From contig NZ_CP028918.1 in assembly GCF_003060865.1 (NCBI RefSeq), forward strand, positions 1,786,001 to 1,850,000: a stretch of 64,000 bases of DNA, read 5' to 3'. Made by a program: the position numbers and the translations under genes. This document shows positions 35,910 to 43,429 of the stretch, piece by piece. The notes beneath the pieces are model-generated. The model was not told where the DNA came from. It saw nothing but the letters and a program-made list of their open reading frames with translations, and searched no databases. Positions within the stretch are counted from its first letter, which is position 1; each line of letters begins with the position of its first letter. This DNA comes from Gemmobacter aquarius. Lineage in GTDB: Bacteria; Pseudomonadota; Alphaproteobacteria; Rhodobacterales; Rhodobacteraceae.

Positions 35910-35983
35910 GCGGGTGTAGCTCAATGGCAGAGCAGCAGCTTCCCAAGCTGAATACGAGGGTTCGATTCCCTTCACCCGCTCCA
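35910..35983 (+). tRNA. tRNA-Gly (anticodon CCC)
   Basis: A 74-nt cloverleaf with acceptor GCGGGTG (35910-35916) paired to CACCCGC, discriminator T and encoded CCA (35981-35983). The anticodon loop TTCCCAA gives CCC, and the T arm contains GGTTCGATTCC. It reads GGG. The last anticodon-stem pair is a G-A mismatch. It borders the accessory radical SAM region, and tRNA genes are common integration sites, although no repeated 3' end was found. Confidence 0.95.
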
Positions 35984-36027
35984 GCATCCCCCCGCCGCCC
36001 GAACGCCTGACGCGCAGCCTGACAGGC

Positions 36028-37665
36028 TCAGGCCGGCGGTTGCATCAGCGCATAAAGCTCCGGCATGGCGTCCGACAGGCTTTGCCCGCGCGATGCGTCC
36101 ATTTCGCGCGTGAACGTCCAGAACTTTGCATTCTCCTCGGGCGAGTAGGATTCCTTTTCAATCGCCGCCGCCAGCGATTCAAGCGGGACGGCATAGGCCC
36201 AATCGGGGGCATCCGCCGTCCGCTTTGCGATATGCCCGCGCAACAGGCTGACCGACCGCTCGCGCGCCGCATCGGGCATCGCCCTTATCCCCAGATGCGG
36301 TGGATATTGCAGCAGATGCCCGCTGAACTCGATCCCGACCTCCTCGCAGTAATCGACAAGCTCGACGATCCGCAGCGCATTGTAGGCCTGCACCGTCACC
36401 GCGGCCCTCATCTCGATCATCTCAAGCGCGGCGAAAGCACGGATGTTGCGGTCTATGACCGACCAGTCCGACGGGTAGCGGATGTATTCGTTGACGGCCC
36501 CGAAACCGTCGACACTCATGGCGAGGAGAGTAAACTTGAAGCTGGTAAGGATATCGATCCACTCGTCACCCGCCTGAGTGCCATTTGTCGCCATCTCGAG
36601 TCTGATATTCTGCGCGACCCCGCGCTCGATCAGACGGCGCGCAAAGGTCTGCGCTTCCTTGATCAGCAAAGGCTCGCCGCCGATCAGCCGCACAATCTCG
36701 AGGCTCTCGGCCCGCTCGAGCAGTTCGTCGGTCATGAAGGCTTCGCTCTGGAACCATTGATCGCCATTCTCGAACCGGCTGAACACCAGCTTGCTGCCGC
36801 CTTGGTTCGACCGCAGCAGTTTCACGGCCTCGACCGCGACAGGCCCGCCCGCCACCACGATCTTCACGTCGAGATAGGCCGCAGCCTCCACCCCCTCGAC
36901 ATCGAAGCGCCGCTCGTAGCGACCCGAAACCTGCGCCGTCTCCAGCAAGACATCGTTGGCATAGATGCTGGCTTCGGTCGCCTCGGCAGCGAAGAGCTGT
37001 ATCGAAAAGCCGCTGACCCCGACCCCGTAGACCGATGCCTTGACGGTGCCGCTGCCATGCACCCAGCTTCGCAGGGTGCCGTCTTCCTGCGCGGGATAGG
37101 TCAATCCCGCATAGGTCACGCCAAGCACATGATTTGGCGCGATCAGCGATCCGTCGCGGCGCCACCGCGCCGCAACCGGCCCCGGCGGGGCCCAACGCGA
37201 ATGCACCGGATCGGCAGCAATCGCCGAAGAATAGGAACTGTTGCACATCCGGCATTTAAGGTTGCACAGGTTGCCGATATCGAGGTCGAGCGCAGAGACG
37301 CCTTCTTCAATGCGGAAATCGGCCTCGGCCAGTTTCTTGGCATCCTCGGGCGTCCAGGCCCTTGAAAGCTCGGTCCGCTCCGTCCCCATGCTCTTCATTC
37401 CTCCCGCCTCTTGGCGGTAGCAGTAAGAGCACCCCTTGGCTGGCTTGCCGTTCGAAAGATCACGGCGCAGGTCGCGCATGTCCTGCGAATTCCAGATTTC
37501 TTCAAGCGTATGCTCATAGACCGACATCGGCGCTCCGTCCTTGTGGATCGGCGTCGTATAGGCGCAGCAGGGCTTGACCTGACCGGAGGGCATGACGTTG
37601 AGCGCGCTGAACGGATAGATGCAAAACGGGTCGGCAAGCAGTCCGGTCTTTTCACGCACGGTCAT
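36028..37665 (-). CDS. Twitch/SPASM-type radical SAM protein with inserted domain, copy B
   Basis: A 545-residue protein. An N-terminal SPASM-like cysteine set (Cys15, Cys33-Cys34, Cys79-x2-Cys82: PFCIYPFSALN, VKPCCAYTTP, GCSYCYRQE) can bind an auxiliary cluster. The radical SAM motif is NLCNLKCRMC (Cys134, Cys138, Cys141). Between it and the SAM-contact motif LIGGEPLLIKEAQ (~320-332) lie about 125 extra residues (roughly 165-290) with beta-rich alternation (SVYGVGVSGFSIQLFAAEA, ASIYANDVLLETAQVSGRYE), resembling a carbohydrate-binding-like sandwich. The barrel then continues (MATNGTQ, LLAMSVDGFGAVNEYIRYP). The reaction is unknown: peptide or sugar modification is possible. It is the downstream copy, 118 bp after copy A, and ends 44 bp from tRNA-Gly. 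Confidence 0.85.
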   Translation of the reverse strand: MTVREKTGLLADPFCIYPFSALNVMPSGQVKPCCAYTTPIHKDGAPMSVYEHTLEEIWNSQDMRDLRRDLSNGKPAKGCSYCYRQEAGGMKSMGTERTELSRAWTPEDAKKLAEADFRIEEGVSALDLDIGNLCNLKCRMCNSSYSSAIAADPVHSRWAPPGPVAARWRRDGSLIAPNHVLGVTYAGLTYPAQEDGTLRSWVHGSGTVKASVYGVGVSGFSIQLFAAEATEASIYANDVLLETAQVSGRYERRFDVEGVEAAAYLDVKIVVAGGPVAVEAVKLLRSNQGGSKLVFSRFENGDQWFQSEAFMTDELLERAESLEIVRLIGGEPLLIKEAQTFARRLIERGVAQNIRLEMATNGTQAGDEWIDILTSFKFTLLAMSVDGFGAVNEYIRYPSDWSVIDRNIRAFAALEMIEMRAAVTVQAYNALRIVELVDYCEEVGIEFSGHLLQYPPHLGIRAMPDAARERSVSLLRGHIAKRTADAPDWAYAVPLESLAAAIEKESYSPEENAKFWTFTREMDASRGQSLSDAMPELYALMQPPA

Positions 37666-37783
37666 AACTCGCCCCTCATAAATTTACCCGGCGAAACATC
37701 GCACAGCTTAATGACCGCGCAAAGCGGTTTGATCCCTGCACCGGTCCCCGCCATCCGAACACCTGACGCGCAGCCCGACCGGC

Positions 37784-39421
37784 TCAGGCAGGCGGCTGCA
37801 TCAAAGCGTAAAGCTCTGGCATGGCGTCCGGCAGGCTCTGCCCGCGCGATGCGTCCATTTCGCGCGTGAACGTCCAGAACTTGGCATTTTCCTCGGGCGA
37901 ATAGGATTCCCTTTCGATCGCCGCCGCCAGCGACTCGAGCGGGACGGCATAGGCCCAATCGGGGGCATCCGCCGTCCGCTTTGCGATATGCCCGCGCAAC
38001 AGGCTGACCGACCGCTCGCGTGCCGCATCGGGCATCGCGCGTATCCCCAGATGCGGCGGATATTGCAGCAGATGGCCGCTGAAAAGTATTCCCACTTCCT
38101 CGCAGTAATCGACAAGCTCGACGATCCGCAGCGCATTATAGGCCTGCACCGTCACCGCCGCCCTCACATCGATCGTGCTTTGCGCGGCGAAAGCGCGGAT
38201 GTTACGGTCGATCACTGCCCACTCCGACGGGTAGCGGATAAATTCGTTGACCGCCCCGAAACCGTCCAGACTGATGGCAAGATAAACCTTCTTGAACTGC
38301 GTCAGCAGCCCGATCCACTCCTCACCCGCCTGCGTTCCGTTCGTCGTGATCGCGAGTGTTATATTCTGCGCCACTCCGCGCTCGATCAGGCCGCGCGCGA
38401 AGGCCTGCGCTTCCTTGATCAGCAAAGGCTCGCCGCCGATCAACTGCACGATCTCGAGACTCTCTGCCCGCTCGAGCAGTTCTCCGGCCATGAAGGCTTC
38501 GCTCTGGAACCATTGCTCGCCATTCTCGAACCGGCTGAAGACCAGCTTGTTGCCGCCCCGGTTCGACCGCAGCAGTTTCACGGCCTCGACCGCGACAGGC
38601 CCGCCCGCCACCACGATCTTCACGTCGAGATAGGCCGCCGCCTCCAACCCTTCGACATCGAAGCGCCGCTCGTAGCGGCCCGAAACCTGCGCCGTCTCCA
38701 GCAAGACCTCATTGGCGTAGATGCTGGCCTCGGTCGCCTCGGCAGCGAAGAGCTGTATCGAAAAGCCGCTGACCCCGACCCCGTAGACCGATGCCTTGAC
38801 GTTGGCACTTTCATGCACCCAGCTTCGCAGGGTGCCGTCTTCGCGGGCAGGATAGGTCAATCCGGCATAGGTGACGCCAAGCACGTGGTTTGGCGCGATC
38901 ACCGACCCGTCCCCGCGCCAGCGCGCCGCAACAGGCCCCGGCGGGGCCCAACGCGAATGCACCGGATCGGCAGCAATCGCCGACGAATAGGAACTGTTGC
39001 ACATCCGGCATTTCAGATTGCACAGGTTCCCGACGTCGAGATCCAGCGCAGATACGCCTTCGGCCATCCGATAATCGGCCCCGGCCAGTTCTGCACGGTC
39101 CTCGGGCGTCCACGCCTTCGAACTCTCGTTCCGCACCGTCCCCATGCTCTTCATGCCCGACGCCTCTTGGCGGTAGCAATAGGAACACCCTTTGGCCGGC
39201 TTGCCGTTCGAAAGATCACGGCGCAGGTCGCGCATATCCCGCGAATTCCAGATTTCCTCGAGCGAATGCTCGTACACCGACATAGGCGCACCGTCCTTCT
39301 GGATCGGCGTCGTATAGGCGCAGCAGGGCTTGACCTGACCGGAGGGCATCACATTGAGCGCGCTGAACGGATAGATGCAAAACGGGTCGGCAAGCAGTCC
39401 GGTCTTTTCACGCACAGTCAT
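37784..39421 (-). CDS. Twitch/SPASM-type radical SAM protein with inserted domain, copy A
   Basis: A 545-residue paralogue of the neighbouring gene, colinear over its whole length, with the same cysteine set and inserted domain. Most of the protein is near-identical; differences gather in two places: the linker before the CxxxCxxC motif (TVRNESSKAWTPEDRAELAG versus TERTELSRAWTPEDAKKLAE), and the barrel segment after GGEPLLIKEAQ (LAITTNGTQAGEEWIGLLTQ, YLAISLDGFGAVNEFIRYP). Those barrel segments line the active site in radical SAM enzymes, so the copies may have different substrates. GGGCGAG precedes the ATG in both copies. RidA is divergently transcribed 212 bp away. Confidence 0.85.
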   Translation of the reverse strand: MTVREKTGLLADPFCIYPFSALNVMPSGQVKPCCAYTTPIQKDGAPMSVYEHSLEEIWNSRDMRDLRRDLSNGKPAKGCSYCYRQEASGMKSMGTVRNESSKAWTPEDRAELAGADYRMAEGVSALDLDVGNLCNLKCRMCNSSYSSAIAADPVHSRWAPPGPVAARWRGDGSVIAPNHVLGVTYAGLTYPAREDGTLRSWVHESANVKASVYGVGVSGFSIQLFAAEATEASIYANEVLLETAQVSGRYERRFDVEGLEAAAYLDVKIVVAGGPVAVEAVKLLRSNRGGNKLVFSRFENGEQWFQSEAFMAGELLERAESLEIVQLIGGEPLLIKEAQAFARGLIERGVAQNITLAITTNGTQAGEEWIGLLTQFKKVYLAISLDGFGAVNEFIRYPSEWAVIDRNIRAFAAQSTIDVRAAVTVQAYNALRIVELVDYCEEVGILFSGHLLQYPPHLGIRAMPDAARERSVSLLRGHIAKRTADAPDWAYAVPLESLAAAIERESYSPEENAKFWTFTREMDASRGQSLPDAMPELYALMQPPA

Positions 39422-39633
39422 CACTCGCCCTTCAACAAAACACATATTCTTTCCAACATTGCACAGCTTTGGGGCCGCGCAAAGCGGTTTGATCCCCGCG
39501 CAGGTTCCCATGTCCGCATCCCGCCGCAGCGGCGGCACGCAGCGCCAAGCTAGCGCACCCCCCCTTTTCTTCCCACCGCGCCACGGCTAGCAAAGACGCC
39601 AGAAACCGCCATAGGAAACAGGAGCTTTTCCTC

Positions 39634-39987
39634 ATGAACACCGACATCACACGCTACGGCACCGGACCCCGCATGTCTGAAGGTGTGGCCTATAACGGCA
39701 TCCTATGGGTTGCCGGTCAGGTCGGCAATCCGGGCGATTCCGTCGCCGACCAGACACGCACCTGCCTGGCCGAGGTCGACCGCATCCTCGCCGCCGCCGG
39801 CACCGACAAGACCCGCATCCTGTCGACCCAGATCTGGCTCGCCGACATGGCCGATTTCGCCGAGATGAATTCGGTCTGGGACGGTTGGGTCCCCCAAGGC
39901 CACACTCCGGCCCGCGCCACCGGCGAAGCCAAACTCGCAACCCCCGCCTACCGCGTAGAAGTCATCGTCACGGCAGCCCTTCGCTGA
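39634..39987 (+). CDS. RidA family protein
   Basis: A 117-residue RidA/YjgF/UK114 domain protein. It shows GVAYNGILWVAGQVG, DQTRTCLAEVDRILAAAGTDKTRIL and ARATGEAKLATPAYRVEVIV. The Arg near residue 106 (YRVEV) is the residue that binds the carboxylate of enamine/imine substrates in deaminating members, and the Glu of 'EVIV' is present, so imine deaminase activity is plausible. AGGAG lies upstream of ATG 39634. It diverges from the radical SAM pair and heads a rightward group with the Cys-tailed protein and glycosyltransferase. Confidence 0.88.
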   Translation: MNTDITRYGTGPRMSEGVAYNGILWVAGQVGNPGDSVADQTRTCLAEVDRILAAAGTDKTRILSTQIWLADMADFAEMNSVWDGWVPQGHTPARATGEAKLATPAYRVEVIVTAALR

Positions 39988-40016: not shown

Positions 40017-40095
40017 ACCCCCTTGCGCCGCGTGACGGGGCGCCACTGCGTCCCGTCACGCGCAGAAAATCCCGCGGACATTCCGCCGCAGGCTA

Positions 40096-40539
40096 TTGCG
40101 GACGGGCACTGCCATAGGTGCGGTTCTCGTTTTCACCACACAGATGGCCCAAGCCGATGCGTCGGCTGCAAATTGCAACATCCAGTCGACCGGCGGCGGA
40201 TTCGTCGGTGCCGTTTCGGTTTGGGTGAACGGCCTACGCACCAACGTTCCAATCGGGGAACGCGGCCTGACCCGCAGCATCGCTTATAACGATCAAGACC
40301 TGTTCGACTGGATGCGGTCCGAGTTCGGCATCGCTCCCGATATGCCTATCGGTCACAACGATTGTGCAGGCTCGTTTCGGGTGGGGCAAGCTGTCCGCGT
40401 TCAGGATGAAACGCCCCCGCCAGCCGCTGTCATTCCGCCGCCGCCGCCTCCACCGCCTGCTGAAACTCCCCCGACCTGTGGTCCCACTTGCGGCCCGACC
40501 TGTGGCCCGAATCTTGGTCCCTGCGGTCCCGCCACCTGA
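40096..40539 (+). CDS. Small exported protein with Pro-rich linker and Cys-Gly-Pro tail
   Basis: A 147-residue protein read from a TTG start at 40096 (AGG just upstream); the alternative ATG at 40144 would lose the signal peptide (GTAIGAVLVFTTQMAQADA). The mature part has about 85 residues with three Cys (ANCNIQSTGGG, HNDCAGSFRVGQAVRV), then a run of prolines (VIPPPPPPPPAETPP) and the tail TCGPTCGPTCGPNLGPCGPA with four Cys in a CGP repeat. I recognise no family. A repeated Cys motif next to radical SAM genes recalls thioether-bridged peptide precursors, but the tail may simply anchor or cross-link the protein. Low-confidence start. Confidence 0.5.
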   Translation: MRTGTAIGAVLVFTTQMAQADASAANCNIQSTGGGFVGAVSVWVNGLRTNVPIGERGLTRSIAYNDQDLFDWMRSEFGIAPDMPIGHNDCAGSFRVGQAVRVQDETPPPAAVIPPPPPPPPAETPPTCGPTCGPTCGPNLGPCGPAT

Positions 40540-40562
40540 AGCGTCGAATGGCCCGAGCAACA

Positions 40563-40590
40563 GGCCGACCGTCAGCATGGACGGTCGGCC
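40563..40590. repeat. Perfect hairpin between the Cys-tailed protein and the glycosyltransferase
   Basis: GGCCGACCGTC (40563-40573) and GACGGTCGGCC (40580-40590) form an 11-bp stem with a 6-base loop AGCATG, 24 bp before the glycosyltransferase start. No T run follows, so it may attenuate or stabilise transcript rather than terminate it. Confidence 0.6.
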
Positions 40591-40613
40591 ACCCCATTGA
40601 ACTGCAGTGAAGA

Positions 40614-41810
40614 ATGACCAAGAACGTCCTCCTCGCCAACGAATTCGGCATCGGGCGAGGCCATATCGTTCAACTCTTGCAAACCGCCCTCGCGCTCGGT
40701 CCGGGCTTTACCTTCGAAGCAGCGCTCTACAACCGCTCCTTTGCAGCCGAACTCGCCCCGCTCGGGGCGCTGGTCTATGACGGGCCGGGCTATGTCTACG
40801 ATGCAAGCCGCAGAACGGGACCAAAATCGGCAACCACCGCCACATGGGGAGAATTCCTCGGCGATCTCGGCTTTTCGCAGCGCGACAGGGTGCGCGATAT
40901 CGTCATGTGGTGGCACAACGTCCTTGGCCAACGCCGGATCGACCTTCTGGTCGCCGATTACGCCCCCCTTGCCCTGCTCGCGGCACGGGCGCGCGGCATA
41001 CCGACCATCGCGGTCGGTCAGGGCTACGGCCTGCCCCCCGATCACCTGTCGCAATTTCCGCCGCTGCACGCCGGCCCCCTGTCGCGCCTCCATGACGAGG
41101 AAGCGCTCCTCGACAACGTAAACGCCGCCGCGTCGGGGATCGGCCTTGCCCCGCTCGCGGGCCTGCCACAGGTCTACCAAAGCACCCTGCCCATGGTGCG
41201 GACCCTGCCCTTCCTCGATGCCTATCAGGGGCACCGGCGCTTTCCTTACGTGCTTCCCAAAATCCCCACCACCAACACCATCGCAGCCAACGGGGACGAG
41301 GTTTTCATCTACTTCTCCACCCAGGAACTCAACGATCCCCAGGTGGTCGATGCCTTGGCCAGCCTGCCCCTGCCGCGCCGCGCCTTCCTGCCGACCGCGT
41401 CACCCGAAACCGCCGCCCGTCTGGCCGCGTCCGGCATCATCGTCGAGACGCAGCCCGTACCCGCCGACCTGATCGCCGCCCGTTCGCGGCTCATGGTGCA
41501 TTCCGGCCAGCACGGCACACTCTGTCTCGGCCTGTTCGCGGGCCTTCCCCAGGTCGCCTTTCCGCAGCATATGGAGCAATCCCACCACGCCGATGCAGTC
41601 GCGGCACAGGGCACGGCCCGCGTCATCGGCAGGGCCAGCCGCAGCCGTGACCATATCACCGACACCATCCAGTCGCTTTGGTCCGATGCCGAAATGGCCC
41701 GCAAGGCGCAAGACCTCGCGCGTTCCCTGCGCCAGACCTACGTCATCGACGCGGACGAGGCCGCACGCACATGGCTTAAACCCCTGCGCGACACCGTGAT
41801 GTTCACCTGA
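40614..41810 (+). CDS. GT-B glycosyltransferase, UGT/MGT-like
   Basis: A 398-residue protein of the UDP-glycosyltransferase/MGT type. The N-terminal acceptor domain has NVLLANEFGIGRGHIVQLLQ and DLLVADYAPLALLAARARGIP; the C-terminal donor domain carries HSGQHGTLCLGLFAGLPQVAFPQHMEQSHHADAVAAQGTARVI, which corresponds to the UGT signature (HxGxxxxxxxxxxGxPxxxxPxxxxQxxxAxxxxxxGxG). No membrane segment. It would glycosylate a small molecule, lipid or peptide; donor unknown. It lies 74 bp after the Cys-tailed protein on the same strand and ends 17 bp from the convergent pgi. Confidence 0.8.
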   Translation: MTKNVLLANEFGIGRGHIVQLLQTALALGPGFTFEAALYNRSFAAELAPLGALVYDGPGYVYDASRRTGPKSATTATWGEFLGDLGFSQRDRVRDIVMWWHNVLGQRRIDLLVADYAPLALLAARARGIPTIAVGQGYGLPPDHLSQFPPLHAGPLSRLHDEEALLDNVNAAASGIGLAPLAGLPQVYQSTLPMVRTLPFLDAYQGHRRFPYVLPKIPTTNTIAANGDEVFIYFSTQELNDPQVVDALASLPLPRRAFLPTASPETAARLAASGIIVETQPVPADLIAARSRLMVHSGQHGTLCLGLFAGLPQVAFPQHMEQSHHADAVAAQGTARVIGRASRSRDHITDTIQSLWSDAEMARKAQDLARSLRQTYVIDADEAARTWLKPLRDTVMFT

Positions 41811-41827
41811 CCGGCGCCACCCGCAGC

Positions 41828-43429
41828 CTAGCTGCGAAGGTACTCGACCAAAGCTTGCGTCGACCCGTCCTTGCCAGCCGCCGTGGCCTTGCCCTCCAGC
41901 ACCGGCTGCAAGGCAAGCGCCAACTCCTTGCCCAGTTCCACGCCCCATTGGTCGTAGGAATTGATGCCAAGGATCACCCCTTCGACGAACACCCGATGCT
42001 CGTAAAGCACTACGATCTGGCCCAGCACGAAAGGCGTCAGCTTCGGGTACGCCAGCACGGTCGAGGGCCGGTTTCCGGGAAACACCCGATGCCGCGCCTG
42101 CCGGTCCAGCTCGTCGCCCACCAGCCCCTTGGCCGCCATTATGGCCCGCGCCTCGTCCAATGACCGCCCGCGCAACAGCGCCTCGGCCTGCGCGAGGCAA
42201 TTGGACACCAAGAGAAGATGCTGGTGCGACAACTCCGGCTCGTGCCCGTGCCGCGCCACGAGAAATTCGCAAGGCACCACCCGCGTGCCCTGATGGATCA
42301 GCTGGTAAAATGCATGCTGCCCGTTCGTCCCCGGCTCGCCCCAGACCACAGGGCCGGAATGGATCGCCAGATCCGACCCGTCCATCGCCACCCGCTTGCC
42401 GTTGCTCTCCATCTCCAACTGCTGCAAATAGGCGGGCAACCGCGACAGCCGCTGGTCATAGGGCAGCACCGCCCGCGTGGCAAAGCCGCAGATCTGGTTG
42501 TGCCAGATACCGACCAAGGCCAGCAGCACCGGCAGGTTCTCGTCAAACCCCGCCTCGCAGAAATGCACGTCCATCGCGTGCCCGCCGGCCAGAAACTCGC
42601 GGAACCGCACAGGCCCCACCGCCAGCATCAACGCAAGCCCGATCGGCCCCCAAAGCGAATAGCGCCCGCCGACCCAATCCTCGAAGCCGAACACCCGTGA
42701 CGGATCGATGCCAAAGGCCGCCGTCTTCTCCGCCGCCGTCGACACGGCGGCAAACTGCGCGCCGGGGTTTTTCACGACCCGCGCCATCCAGTCGCGCGCG
42801 GTCTGCGCGTTTGTCATCGTCTCGATGGTGGTAAAGGTCTTGGATGCCACGATCACCAGCGTCGTCGCAGGGTCCAGCCCCCGCAGCGTATCGGCGATAT
42901 GCGCGCCATCGACGTTCGACACGTAATGCACCCGCGGCCCGTTGTGATAAGGTGCCAAGGCAAGTGTGGCCATCGCAGGCCCAAGGTCCGACCCGCCGAT
43001 CCCGATATTCACCACATCGGTGATCGCCCCGCCCTGCCCGGCAAACCGCCCCTCGCGGACATCGGCCGCAAAGGCCTCCATCCGCTCCAGCGTGGCCTTG
43101 ATCCCCGCCACCACGTTCTTGCCGCCCACGATCACCGTGCCATCGAGATCGCGCAGCGCCGTATGAAGCACCGCCCGCCCCTCGGTCTCGTTGATCGTCT
43201 CGCCGGTGAACATGGCCTGCCGCTTGGCCGCAACGCCCGAAGCCTCGGCCAGCGCCACCAGCATGCCCCGCGCTTGCGGGTCGATATTGGTCTTGGACCA
43301 GTCGAACACCATCTCGCCCGCCCGCGCCGTAAACCGCTCGGCCCGCGCGGCATCGTCGAACAACGACAGGATAGACCGGTCCCTGACCGCCTCGTGATGC
43401 GCCGACAGCGCCTGCCAGATCTCGTTCAT
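41828..43429 (-). CDS. pgi: Glucose-6-phosphate isomerase
   Basis: A 533-residue Pgi, interconverting glucose 6-phosphate and fructose 6-phosphate. Motifs include [72 protein letters not shown] and the C-terminal signature [16 protein letters not shown]. Third gene of zwf-pgl-pgi, 4 bp after pgl. In Rhodobacteraceae this set feeds the Entner-Doudoroff and oxidative pentose phosphate routes. Confidence 0.97.

What the first reader, a model, noticed from the sequence alone, without database searches (positions are those of the whole stretch)
36001..39496. Tandem-duplicated radical SAM enzymes with a beta-rich domain inserted in the catalytic barrel
Seen: two colinear 545-residue proteins, each with an N-terminal SPASM-like Cys set, CxxxCxxC, and then about 125 extra residues before the GGEP motif. 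Known twitch/SPASM radical SAM proteins normally go straight from the cluster motif into the barrel. The insert has the alternation of a beta sandwich and could recognise a carbohydrate or protein partner. Divergence between copies is concentrated around the barrel segments that face the substrate, while the insert is conserved. This suggests same partner recognition but different chemistry or substrate. Together with RidA, a Cys-tailed exported protein and a glycosyltransferase it may be an undescribed modification system.
Basis: partly seen in the sequence, partly recalled or inferred. Interest (0 to 1): 0.82.

Follow-up and report, generated by a model that had tools for sequence, protein, structure and literature searches.

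The report
Radical enzyme pair with sugar-binding-like insert
Two neighbouring copies of a free-radical enzyme carry a predicted jelly-roll domain, of the shape many sugar-binding proteins have, spliced into their catalytic core; relatives often sit among genes that build surface sugars, so this may be a little-studied way bacteria chemically edit sugar chains.

Summary
Two tandem 545-residue genes on the minus strand (36028-37665, 37784-39421; 90% identical) belong to NCBIfam NF033640, radical SAM enzymes with an N-terminal twitch domain. An extra domain (about residues 168-290) lies between CxxxCxxC and GGEP. AlphaFold2 gives a separate, confident beta jelly roll; CBM8, CBM35 and CBM6 modules are among its best structural matches, tied with non-CBM jelly rolls. 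Insert-less relatives have 42-71 residues there, insert-bearing ones 181-214. The insert recurs in part of the family, over several phyla, with repeated gain or loss.

By my reading, 12 of 16 insert-bearing genome loci have a glycan-type gene nearby (no control tally). Here the pair is an accessory insertion between tRNA-Gly and RidA, absent from 18 congeners. RidA is core; the glycosyltransferase and Cys-tailed ORF form a second accessory insertion.

'Same partner, different chemistry' is not shown. The copies' barrel and linker segments do diverge most, but the insert is intermediate in dN/dS, low in synonymous change too, and least conserved across homologues. Best reading: a glycan-directed radical enzyme with a built-in substrate-holding module. 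The substrate is unproven.

The parts
36028..37665 (-). Copy 1: N-terminal twitch radical SAM protein with insert, 545 aa (P0001)
   Evidence: ORF and translation; NF033640 E 2.9e-88, 296.6 bits against cut-off 170; Pfam SPASM 15-82 and Radical_SAM 314-414
37784..39421 (-). Copy 2: same architecture, 545 aa (P0002), 90% identical
36796..37164 (-). Insert of copy 1, residues about 168-290: predicted jelly-roll beta-sandwich
   Evidence: AF2 strands 172-285; insert folded with 18 insert rows, pLDDT 86.8; structural matches; spacing test
38552..38920 (-). Insert of copy 2, residues about 168-290
   Evidence: 93% identical to the copy 1 piece in alignment A2
37396..37632 (-). N-terminal twitch/SPASM-like domain of copy 1, residues 12-90 (C15, C33, C34, C79, C82)
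   Evidence: Pfam PF13186 at 15-82; column conservation
37243..37266 (-). CxxxCxxC of copy 1 (residues 134-141)
   Evidence: translation; Cys in 44 of 44 rows
36670..36681 (-). GGEP of copy 1 (residues 329-332)
   Evidence: translation; GGE in 44 of 44 rows, P in 42
35990..39496 (-). Tandem duplication, units 35990-37736 and 37746-39496
   Evidence: BLASTN of the two halves, 88.6% over 1759 columns
35996..39620 (.). Accessory insertion 1 between tRNA-Gly and RidA; five relatives (L104, L105, L106, L108, L111) have 62-70 bp here
   Evidence: BLASTN against congeneric loci; in 18 other genus genomes only one weak barrel match, E 9.9e-4
35910..35983 (+). tRNA-Gly (CCC) at the edge of insertion 1
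   Evidence: ARAGORN
39634..39987 (+). RidA-family protein; core gene, not part of the accessory DNA
   Evidence: Pfam PF01042; RidA part of the query matched in 17 of 18 other genus genomes
40026..41834 (+). Accessory insertion 2 between RidA and pgi; 7 of 8 relatives with both ends have 36-111 bp here, L111 has about 1.25 kb
40096..40539 (+). Cys-tailed putative exported ORF (TTG start, Pro run, CGP repeats); orphan, gene status uncertain
   Evidence: 0 of 101 candidates at E <= 0.001; own genome only among 19 of the genus
40614..41810 (+). MGT-type (GT1-like, label partly recalled) glycosyltransferase, 398 aa, accessory
   Evidence: TIGR04516 and MGT models matched far below cut-off; EryCIII-like_C 25.5 bits against 31.7; only a weak partial 22% match in 1 of 18 congeners

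Best explanation
The pair are horizontally acquired, tandemly duplicated radical SAM enzymes of the N-terminal twitch family (NF033640) with a jelly-roll module inserted between the cluster-binding loop and the GGEP strand. Shown by computation: the architecture, the insert's fold class, its recurrence in a subset of the family, its accessory status in this genus, and glycan-assembly neighbours in many relatives. Inferred: the insert sits at the mouth of the barrel and holds a saccharide (lipid-linked, nucleotide-linked or protein-linked) over the active site. SAM on the CxxxCxxC cluster then yields a 5'-deoxyadenosyl radical that takes an H atom from a sugar carbon, and the twitch cluster accepts or donates the second electron, giving epimerisation, oxidation or deoxygenation. 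In this genome the target would be an accessory surface glycan or glycoprotein, possibly made with the neighbouring glycosyltransferase.
Against: No substrate or reaction is shown by any search. The barrel's best structural matches are peptide maturases (SkfB, anSME, SuiB), tied with the sugar enzyme BlsE. A jelly roll need not bind sugar: rows tied with the CBMs include toxin receptor-binding domains and receptor kinases, and the first Foldseek rows for the insert are toxin domains, ahead of or level with CBM51 and CBM6. None of 18 insert pieces matches a Pfam CBM. In the window itself no polysaccharide cluster was seen beside the pair, only one GT. Neighbourhoods were not compared with a control set by Pfam: control genes were called for 8 of 16 chosen insert-less loci but not scanned. 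L003, L007, L012 and L014 show no clear glycan cluster among the neighbours read.
Confidence: 0.45

Rival explanations
1. They are peptide or protein maturases: the jelly roll recognises an exported protein, here the Cys-tailed ORF, and the radical enzymes cross-link or epimerise its tail, with the GT adding a sugar.
For: The Cys-tailed ORF with CGP repeats is accessory in the same place. Barrel matches include SkfB, SuiB and anSME. In 5 of 16 insert loci (L008-L011, L016) the rSAM is flanked by a conserved protein with a likely single membrane segment (by eye) and variable tail and by a GT1-like glycosyltransferase, in the order tail protein, rSAM, GT.
Against: The Cys-tailed ORF has no homologue and is not detectably related to those tail proteins (hhalign probability 0.1). 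The window GT is not in their GT clade. The peptide maturase models listed stay far below cut-off (PapB 37.5 bits against 340). Other insert loci lie among O-antigen-type or flagellin-glycan-type genes.
Confidence: 0.23
2. The insert is a structural or oligomerisation module without ligand, and the two genes are largely redundant duplicates kept similar in places by gene conversion.
For: The insert is the least conserved segment in the family (mean column identity 0.44; other segments 0.46-0.71) and needs about five gains or losses on the tree, so the enzyme family works without it. Synonymous change between the copies is patchy by one test.
Against: P177 and G187 are in 44 of 44 rows, W168 in 43, W201 and N237 in 40, so the module is under constraint. 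The scan test for patchy synonymous change is only borderline (maximum p = 0.17, minimum p = 0.04). dN/dS is uneven, highest in linker and barrel (0.22-0.45) and 0.03-0.07 in the twitch, cluster and C-terminal parts, which could mean divergence in function.
Confidence: 0.2

Closest known systems
NCBIfam NF033640 N_Twi_rSAM (twitch domain-containing radical SAM protein)
   Same: N-terminal SPASM-like Cys set, CxxxCxxC, GGEP, match above cut-off
   Different: The model (398 positions) lacks the jelly-roll insert of about 125 residues; the match splits there
Canonical SPASM/twitch radical SAM enzymes (MoaA, PqqE, SkfB, anSME)
   Different: SPASM/twitch domains are described as C-terminal extensions (PMC9012708, passages); here the domain is N-terminal and a jelly roll interrupts the barrel
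Radical SAM enzymes on sugars and cyclitols (BtrN, NeoN; HygY seen only as a cited title)
   Same: Proposed type of chemistry on a carbohydrate
   Different: Small-molecule antibiotic substrates; no CBM-like insert known to me; BtrN and NeoN were not compared by sequence here and BtrN is not among the rows
Carbohydrate-binding modules CBM6/CBM35/CBM8
   Same: Jelly-roll fold; 112-118 residues aligned at 2.7-3.1 A for 7t7y, 2w3j and 8j3x
   Different: 6-12% identity in those rows, no Pfam CBM match, inserted inside an rSAM barrel rather than appended to a hydrolase

Membership tests
NF033640 N_Twi_rSAM | Score above the curated cut-off of 170 bits | tested here: met
   296.6 and 293.1 bits
NF033640 N_Twi_rSAM | N-terminal twitch Cys set followed by CxxxCxxC | tested here: met
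NF033640 N_Twi_rSAM | Continuous core without an inserted domain, as in the 398-position model | tested here: not met
   Two stretches; the best one starts at residue 299, profile position 151; spacing 187 residues against 42-71. Taken as a variant, since the curated cut-off is met
Canonical C-terminal SPASM/twitch rSAM | Auxiliary-cluster domain C-terminal to the barrel | tested here: not met
   SPASM match at residues 15-82, barrel after it
Radical SAM superfamily | CxxxCxxC and partial TIM barrel | tested here: met
   PF04055; AF2 and VIA
Carbohydrate-binding module (CBM6/35/8) | Jelly-roll beta-sandwich fold | tested here: met
Carbohydrate-binding module (CBM6/35/8) | Sequence match to a known CBM family | tested here: not met
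   0 of 18 insert pieces match a Pfam CBM family, E limit 5
Carbohydrate-binding module (CBM6/35/8) | Measured carbohydrate binding | not testable with these tools
   Needs protein
RiPP / peptide rSAM maturase | Match above cut-off to a maturase model | tested here: not met
   PapB 37.5 and 40.9 bits against 340; the other maturase models among the 25 listed per protein are also below cut-off
RiPP / peptide rSAM maturase | Conserved precursor peptide beside the enzyme | tested here: inconclusive
   The Cys-tailed ORF is an orphan; conserved tail proteins in 5 other loci are not detectably related to it

The most novel reading that the evidence does not exclude
Insert-bearing N-terminal twitch enzymes are a class of glycan-editing radical enzymes that act on assembled surface saccharides (O-antigen, flagellin glycan, exported glycoprotein), with a lectin-like module built into the catalytic barrel to hold the chain. 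The tandem copies here would act on the same chain at two positions.
Probability: 0.25. Interest if true: 0.8.

Novelty: new variant of a known kind. Interest (0 to 1): 0.5.

Why it matters
The radical SAM chemistry on sugars that I know of concerns small molecules such as aminoglycosides (BtrN and NeoN were seen in passages). A radical SAM enzyme with a lectin-like domain placed inside its barrel, found across several phyla and often beside O-antigen-type or flagellin-glycan-type genes, would point to radical editing of polymeric or protein-bound glycans. It would also give a concrete handle (express the insert, screen glycans) on a family that NCBI names only by domain. I found no functional description in the searches run, judged from listings.

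Tried and rejected
RidA as part of a system: rejected, it is core in the genus. Cys-tailed ORF as a relative of the tail proteins of the Reyranella-type loci: rejected at this sensitivity (hhalign probability 0.1). Window GT as an orthologue of the GTs beside insert-rSAM genes: rejected; the five form one clade (100/100) without it, and 11 of 20 class background GTs score higher to it than any of the five. Phage or plasmid carriage: only partial matches, 2 of 50,697 phage records and 1 of 72,556 plasmid records. Pfam identity of the insert: none shared by more than 2 of 18 pieces, best E 0.0028 in one piece. Single origin of the insert on the tree: not supported, about 5 changes and at least 4 forced by starred branches. 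Direct repeat of the tRNA end (10 bases or more) at the far edge of insertion 1: none found. Insert domain elsewhere: 1 weak match in 288 other class genomes, E 9e-4 for one genome, in a frame that reads as a multi-pass membrane protein with no Pfam match at E 0.01; profile comparison 67% probability over 46 columns, a lead only. The first profile comparison with that piece was off frame.

Not tested: orientation of the insert to the active site (the tools give no coordinates); viral and metagenome collections; Pfam scan of control neighbourhoods.
Full report
What is there. Two minus-strand ORFs of 545 aa, 36028-37665 and 37784-39421, are 90% identical and form a tandem duplication whose units are 35990-37736 and 37746-39496. 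Both score far above the NCBIfam cut-off for NF033640, 'twitch domain-containing radical SAM protein' (296.6 and 293.1 bits, cut-off 170), and Pfam places SPASM at 15-82 and Radical_SAM from residue 314 or 317. The NF033640 match is in two stretches; the best one starts at residue 299, profile position 151.

Recurrence. A genome-contig scan gave 71 distinct loci, the best 80 of 91 matches being kept. The distance from CxxxCxxC to GGEP is 181-214 residues in 16 loci (L003-L017, L034) and 42-71 in 52; the motif pair was not found in L018, L028 and L044. The scan was made with an insert-bearing alignment, so these counts are not a frequency. The protein search found 322 proteins, of which 120 were listed. 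Among 121 held, 64 have the long spacing, 25 the short one, 1 lies between (142) and 31 could not be read by the motif pattern. On a 56-row core tree (29 with insert, 27 without; a chosen subset) all 29 fall in one 40-row part (support 92/67), and the insert needs about five changes. Records with it include Methylocystis, Polaromonas, Zetaproteobacteria, Reyranella, Bradyrhizobium, Rhodocyclales, Synechocystis, Holophagaceae and Chlorobiaceae, several of them metagenome-assembled.

Neighbourhoods. L004: Wzt with Wzt_C, TylF, WbsX, ABC2 exporter, and an rSAM-methyltransferase fusion. L005: insert-less twitch rSAM genes upstream (two scanned, a third indicated by tblastn), then TylF, methyltransferase and WbsX. 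L006: TylF, methyltransferase, GSCFA. L013: nucleotidyltransferase and hexapeptide protein. L015: one 1597-aa protein with sulfotransferase, rSAM and class III aminotransferase. L017: sulfotransferase-TPR-methyltransferase-rSAM fusion, a double GT2 protein, and a flagellin motif downstream. L034: MptE-like plus GT1, as in Maf-type proteins (the Maf link is recalled). L008-L011 and L016: a GT1-like gene next to the rSAM. That makes 12 of 16 by my reading. Among 85 neighbours from the 16 loci, at E <= 1e-5: Methyltransf_25 6, Radical_SAM 6, GT2 5, WbsX 3, TylF 3, Wzt_C 3, Flagellin_N 2, but also MFS 3 and others; 25 of 138 families were shown. No control tally was made. L003 has RNase PH, Ham1 and HemN-type genes beside three rSAM genes (two of insert type) and an ABC-2 transporter further off; L007, L012 and L014 are also unclear.

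A second context. In L008, L009, L010, L011 and L016 the order is: tail protein with one likely membrane segment (by eye), insert-rSAM, GT1-like glycosyltransferase. This resembles the window's set (Cys-tailed ORF, GT, rSAM pair), but the window GT is outside their GT clade and the Cys-tailed ORF is not detectably related to their tail proteins. The four of these five that are on the rSAM tree are close relatives, as are the five GTs, so they count as roughly one case. Twenty GT-like loci from 16 class genomes, about 4 kb each, had no rSAM match.

This genome. Among 18 congeners the only match is a 27% barrel match in G296. In the family 47 of 294 other genomes matched, but by short stretches; none of the matches listed spans the insert. 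In the class 1 of 384 others matched at E 1e-12, a 452-aa frame matched only on either side of the insert. These searches score a limited number of first-look candidates. L104, L105, L106, L108 and L111 have 62-70 bp where this genome has insertion 1, directly after tRNA-Gly; L107, L109 and L110 have 0.75-1.35 kb of other DNA there, so the place is variable. Between RidA and pgi this genome has 1.8 kb with the Cys-tailed ORF and GT, where 7 of 8 relatives have 36-111 bp and L111 about 1.25 kb. RidA is matched in 17 of 18 congeners.

The two copies. dN/dS over the whole gene is 0.062/0.324. By region, dN and dS: 1-90 0.024/0.355, 91-125 0.206/0.461, 126-164 0.011/0.346, 165-299 (insert) 0.038/0.207, 300-345 0.064/0.241, 346-375 0.174/0.778, 376-450 0.137/0.481, 451-545 0.014/0.271. 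Linker and barrel segments thus diverge faster in protein terms than the twitch, cluster and C-terminal parts, and the insert lies between. Non-synonymous clustering is strong (p = 0.0002); synonymous clustering is borderline (p = 0.17 for the maximum, 0.04 for the minimum), with a Fisher p of 0.0004 between segments chosen after looking. Patchy gene conversion and selection both remain possible. Across homologues the insert is the least conserved segment, close to the linker (0.44 and 0.46). So the copies do not show 'same partner, different chemistry', and do not exclude it; both keep every cluster Cys and GGEP.

Literature. Searches: 'twitch domain-containing radical SAM' (4 papers), 'NF033640' (0), 'radical SAM' + 'O-antigen' + 'SPASM' (1), 'radical SAM' + 'carbohydrate-binding module' (8), 'radical SAM enzyme' with polysaccharide biosynthesis, epimerase and glycan (0), a six-term SPASM/twitch search (8), NeoN/HygY (7), and radical SAM + flagellin + glycosylation + O-antigen (3). 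From the listings none describes an inserted jelly roll. I read passages only of PMC9012708 and PMC10991966. Subscription papers are mostly not held, so absence in print is not shown.

Noticed in passing
L008:8993-13010, L009:8977-13073, L010:8907-13007, L011:2960-7042, L016:3295-7459: Conserved three-gene order in Reyranella/Bradyrhizobium-type genomes: protein with one likely membrane segment and a variable tail, insert-bearing rSAM, GT1-like glycosyltransferase. The tail protein has no informative Pfam match.
   Followed up: partly
L015:5191-9981: A 1597-aa fusion of sulfotransferase, twitch rSAM and class III aminotransferase beside the insert-bearing rSAM in Synechocystis.
   Followed up: no
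L017:6809-19992: Giant sulfotransferase-TPR-methyltransferase-rSAM fusion followed by a 1663-aa double GT2 protein and, downstream, a flagellin motif: looks like a flagellin glycosylation island.
   Followed up: partly
window 35983-39634 and L107, L109, L110: The tRNA-Gly to RidA interval is a variable insertion site in the genus (62-70 bp in five relatives, 0.75-1.35 kb of other DNA in three).
   Followed up: partly
window 40096-40539: Orphan ORF with a possible signal peptide, poly-Pro run and CGP repeats at the C-terminus, 74 bases upstream of the glycosyltransferase; no homologue found.
   Followed up: partly
L022: A Bdellovibrionia locus with many twitch rSAM-like stretches packed in about 20 kb (19 tblastn pieces).
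   Followed up: no
L140:1-402: Weak similarity of the insert profile to the C-terminus of what reads as a multi-pass membrane protein; possible clue to where the domain came from.
   Followed up: partly
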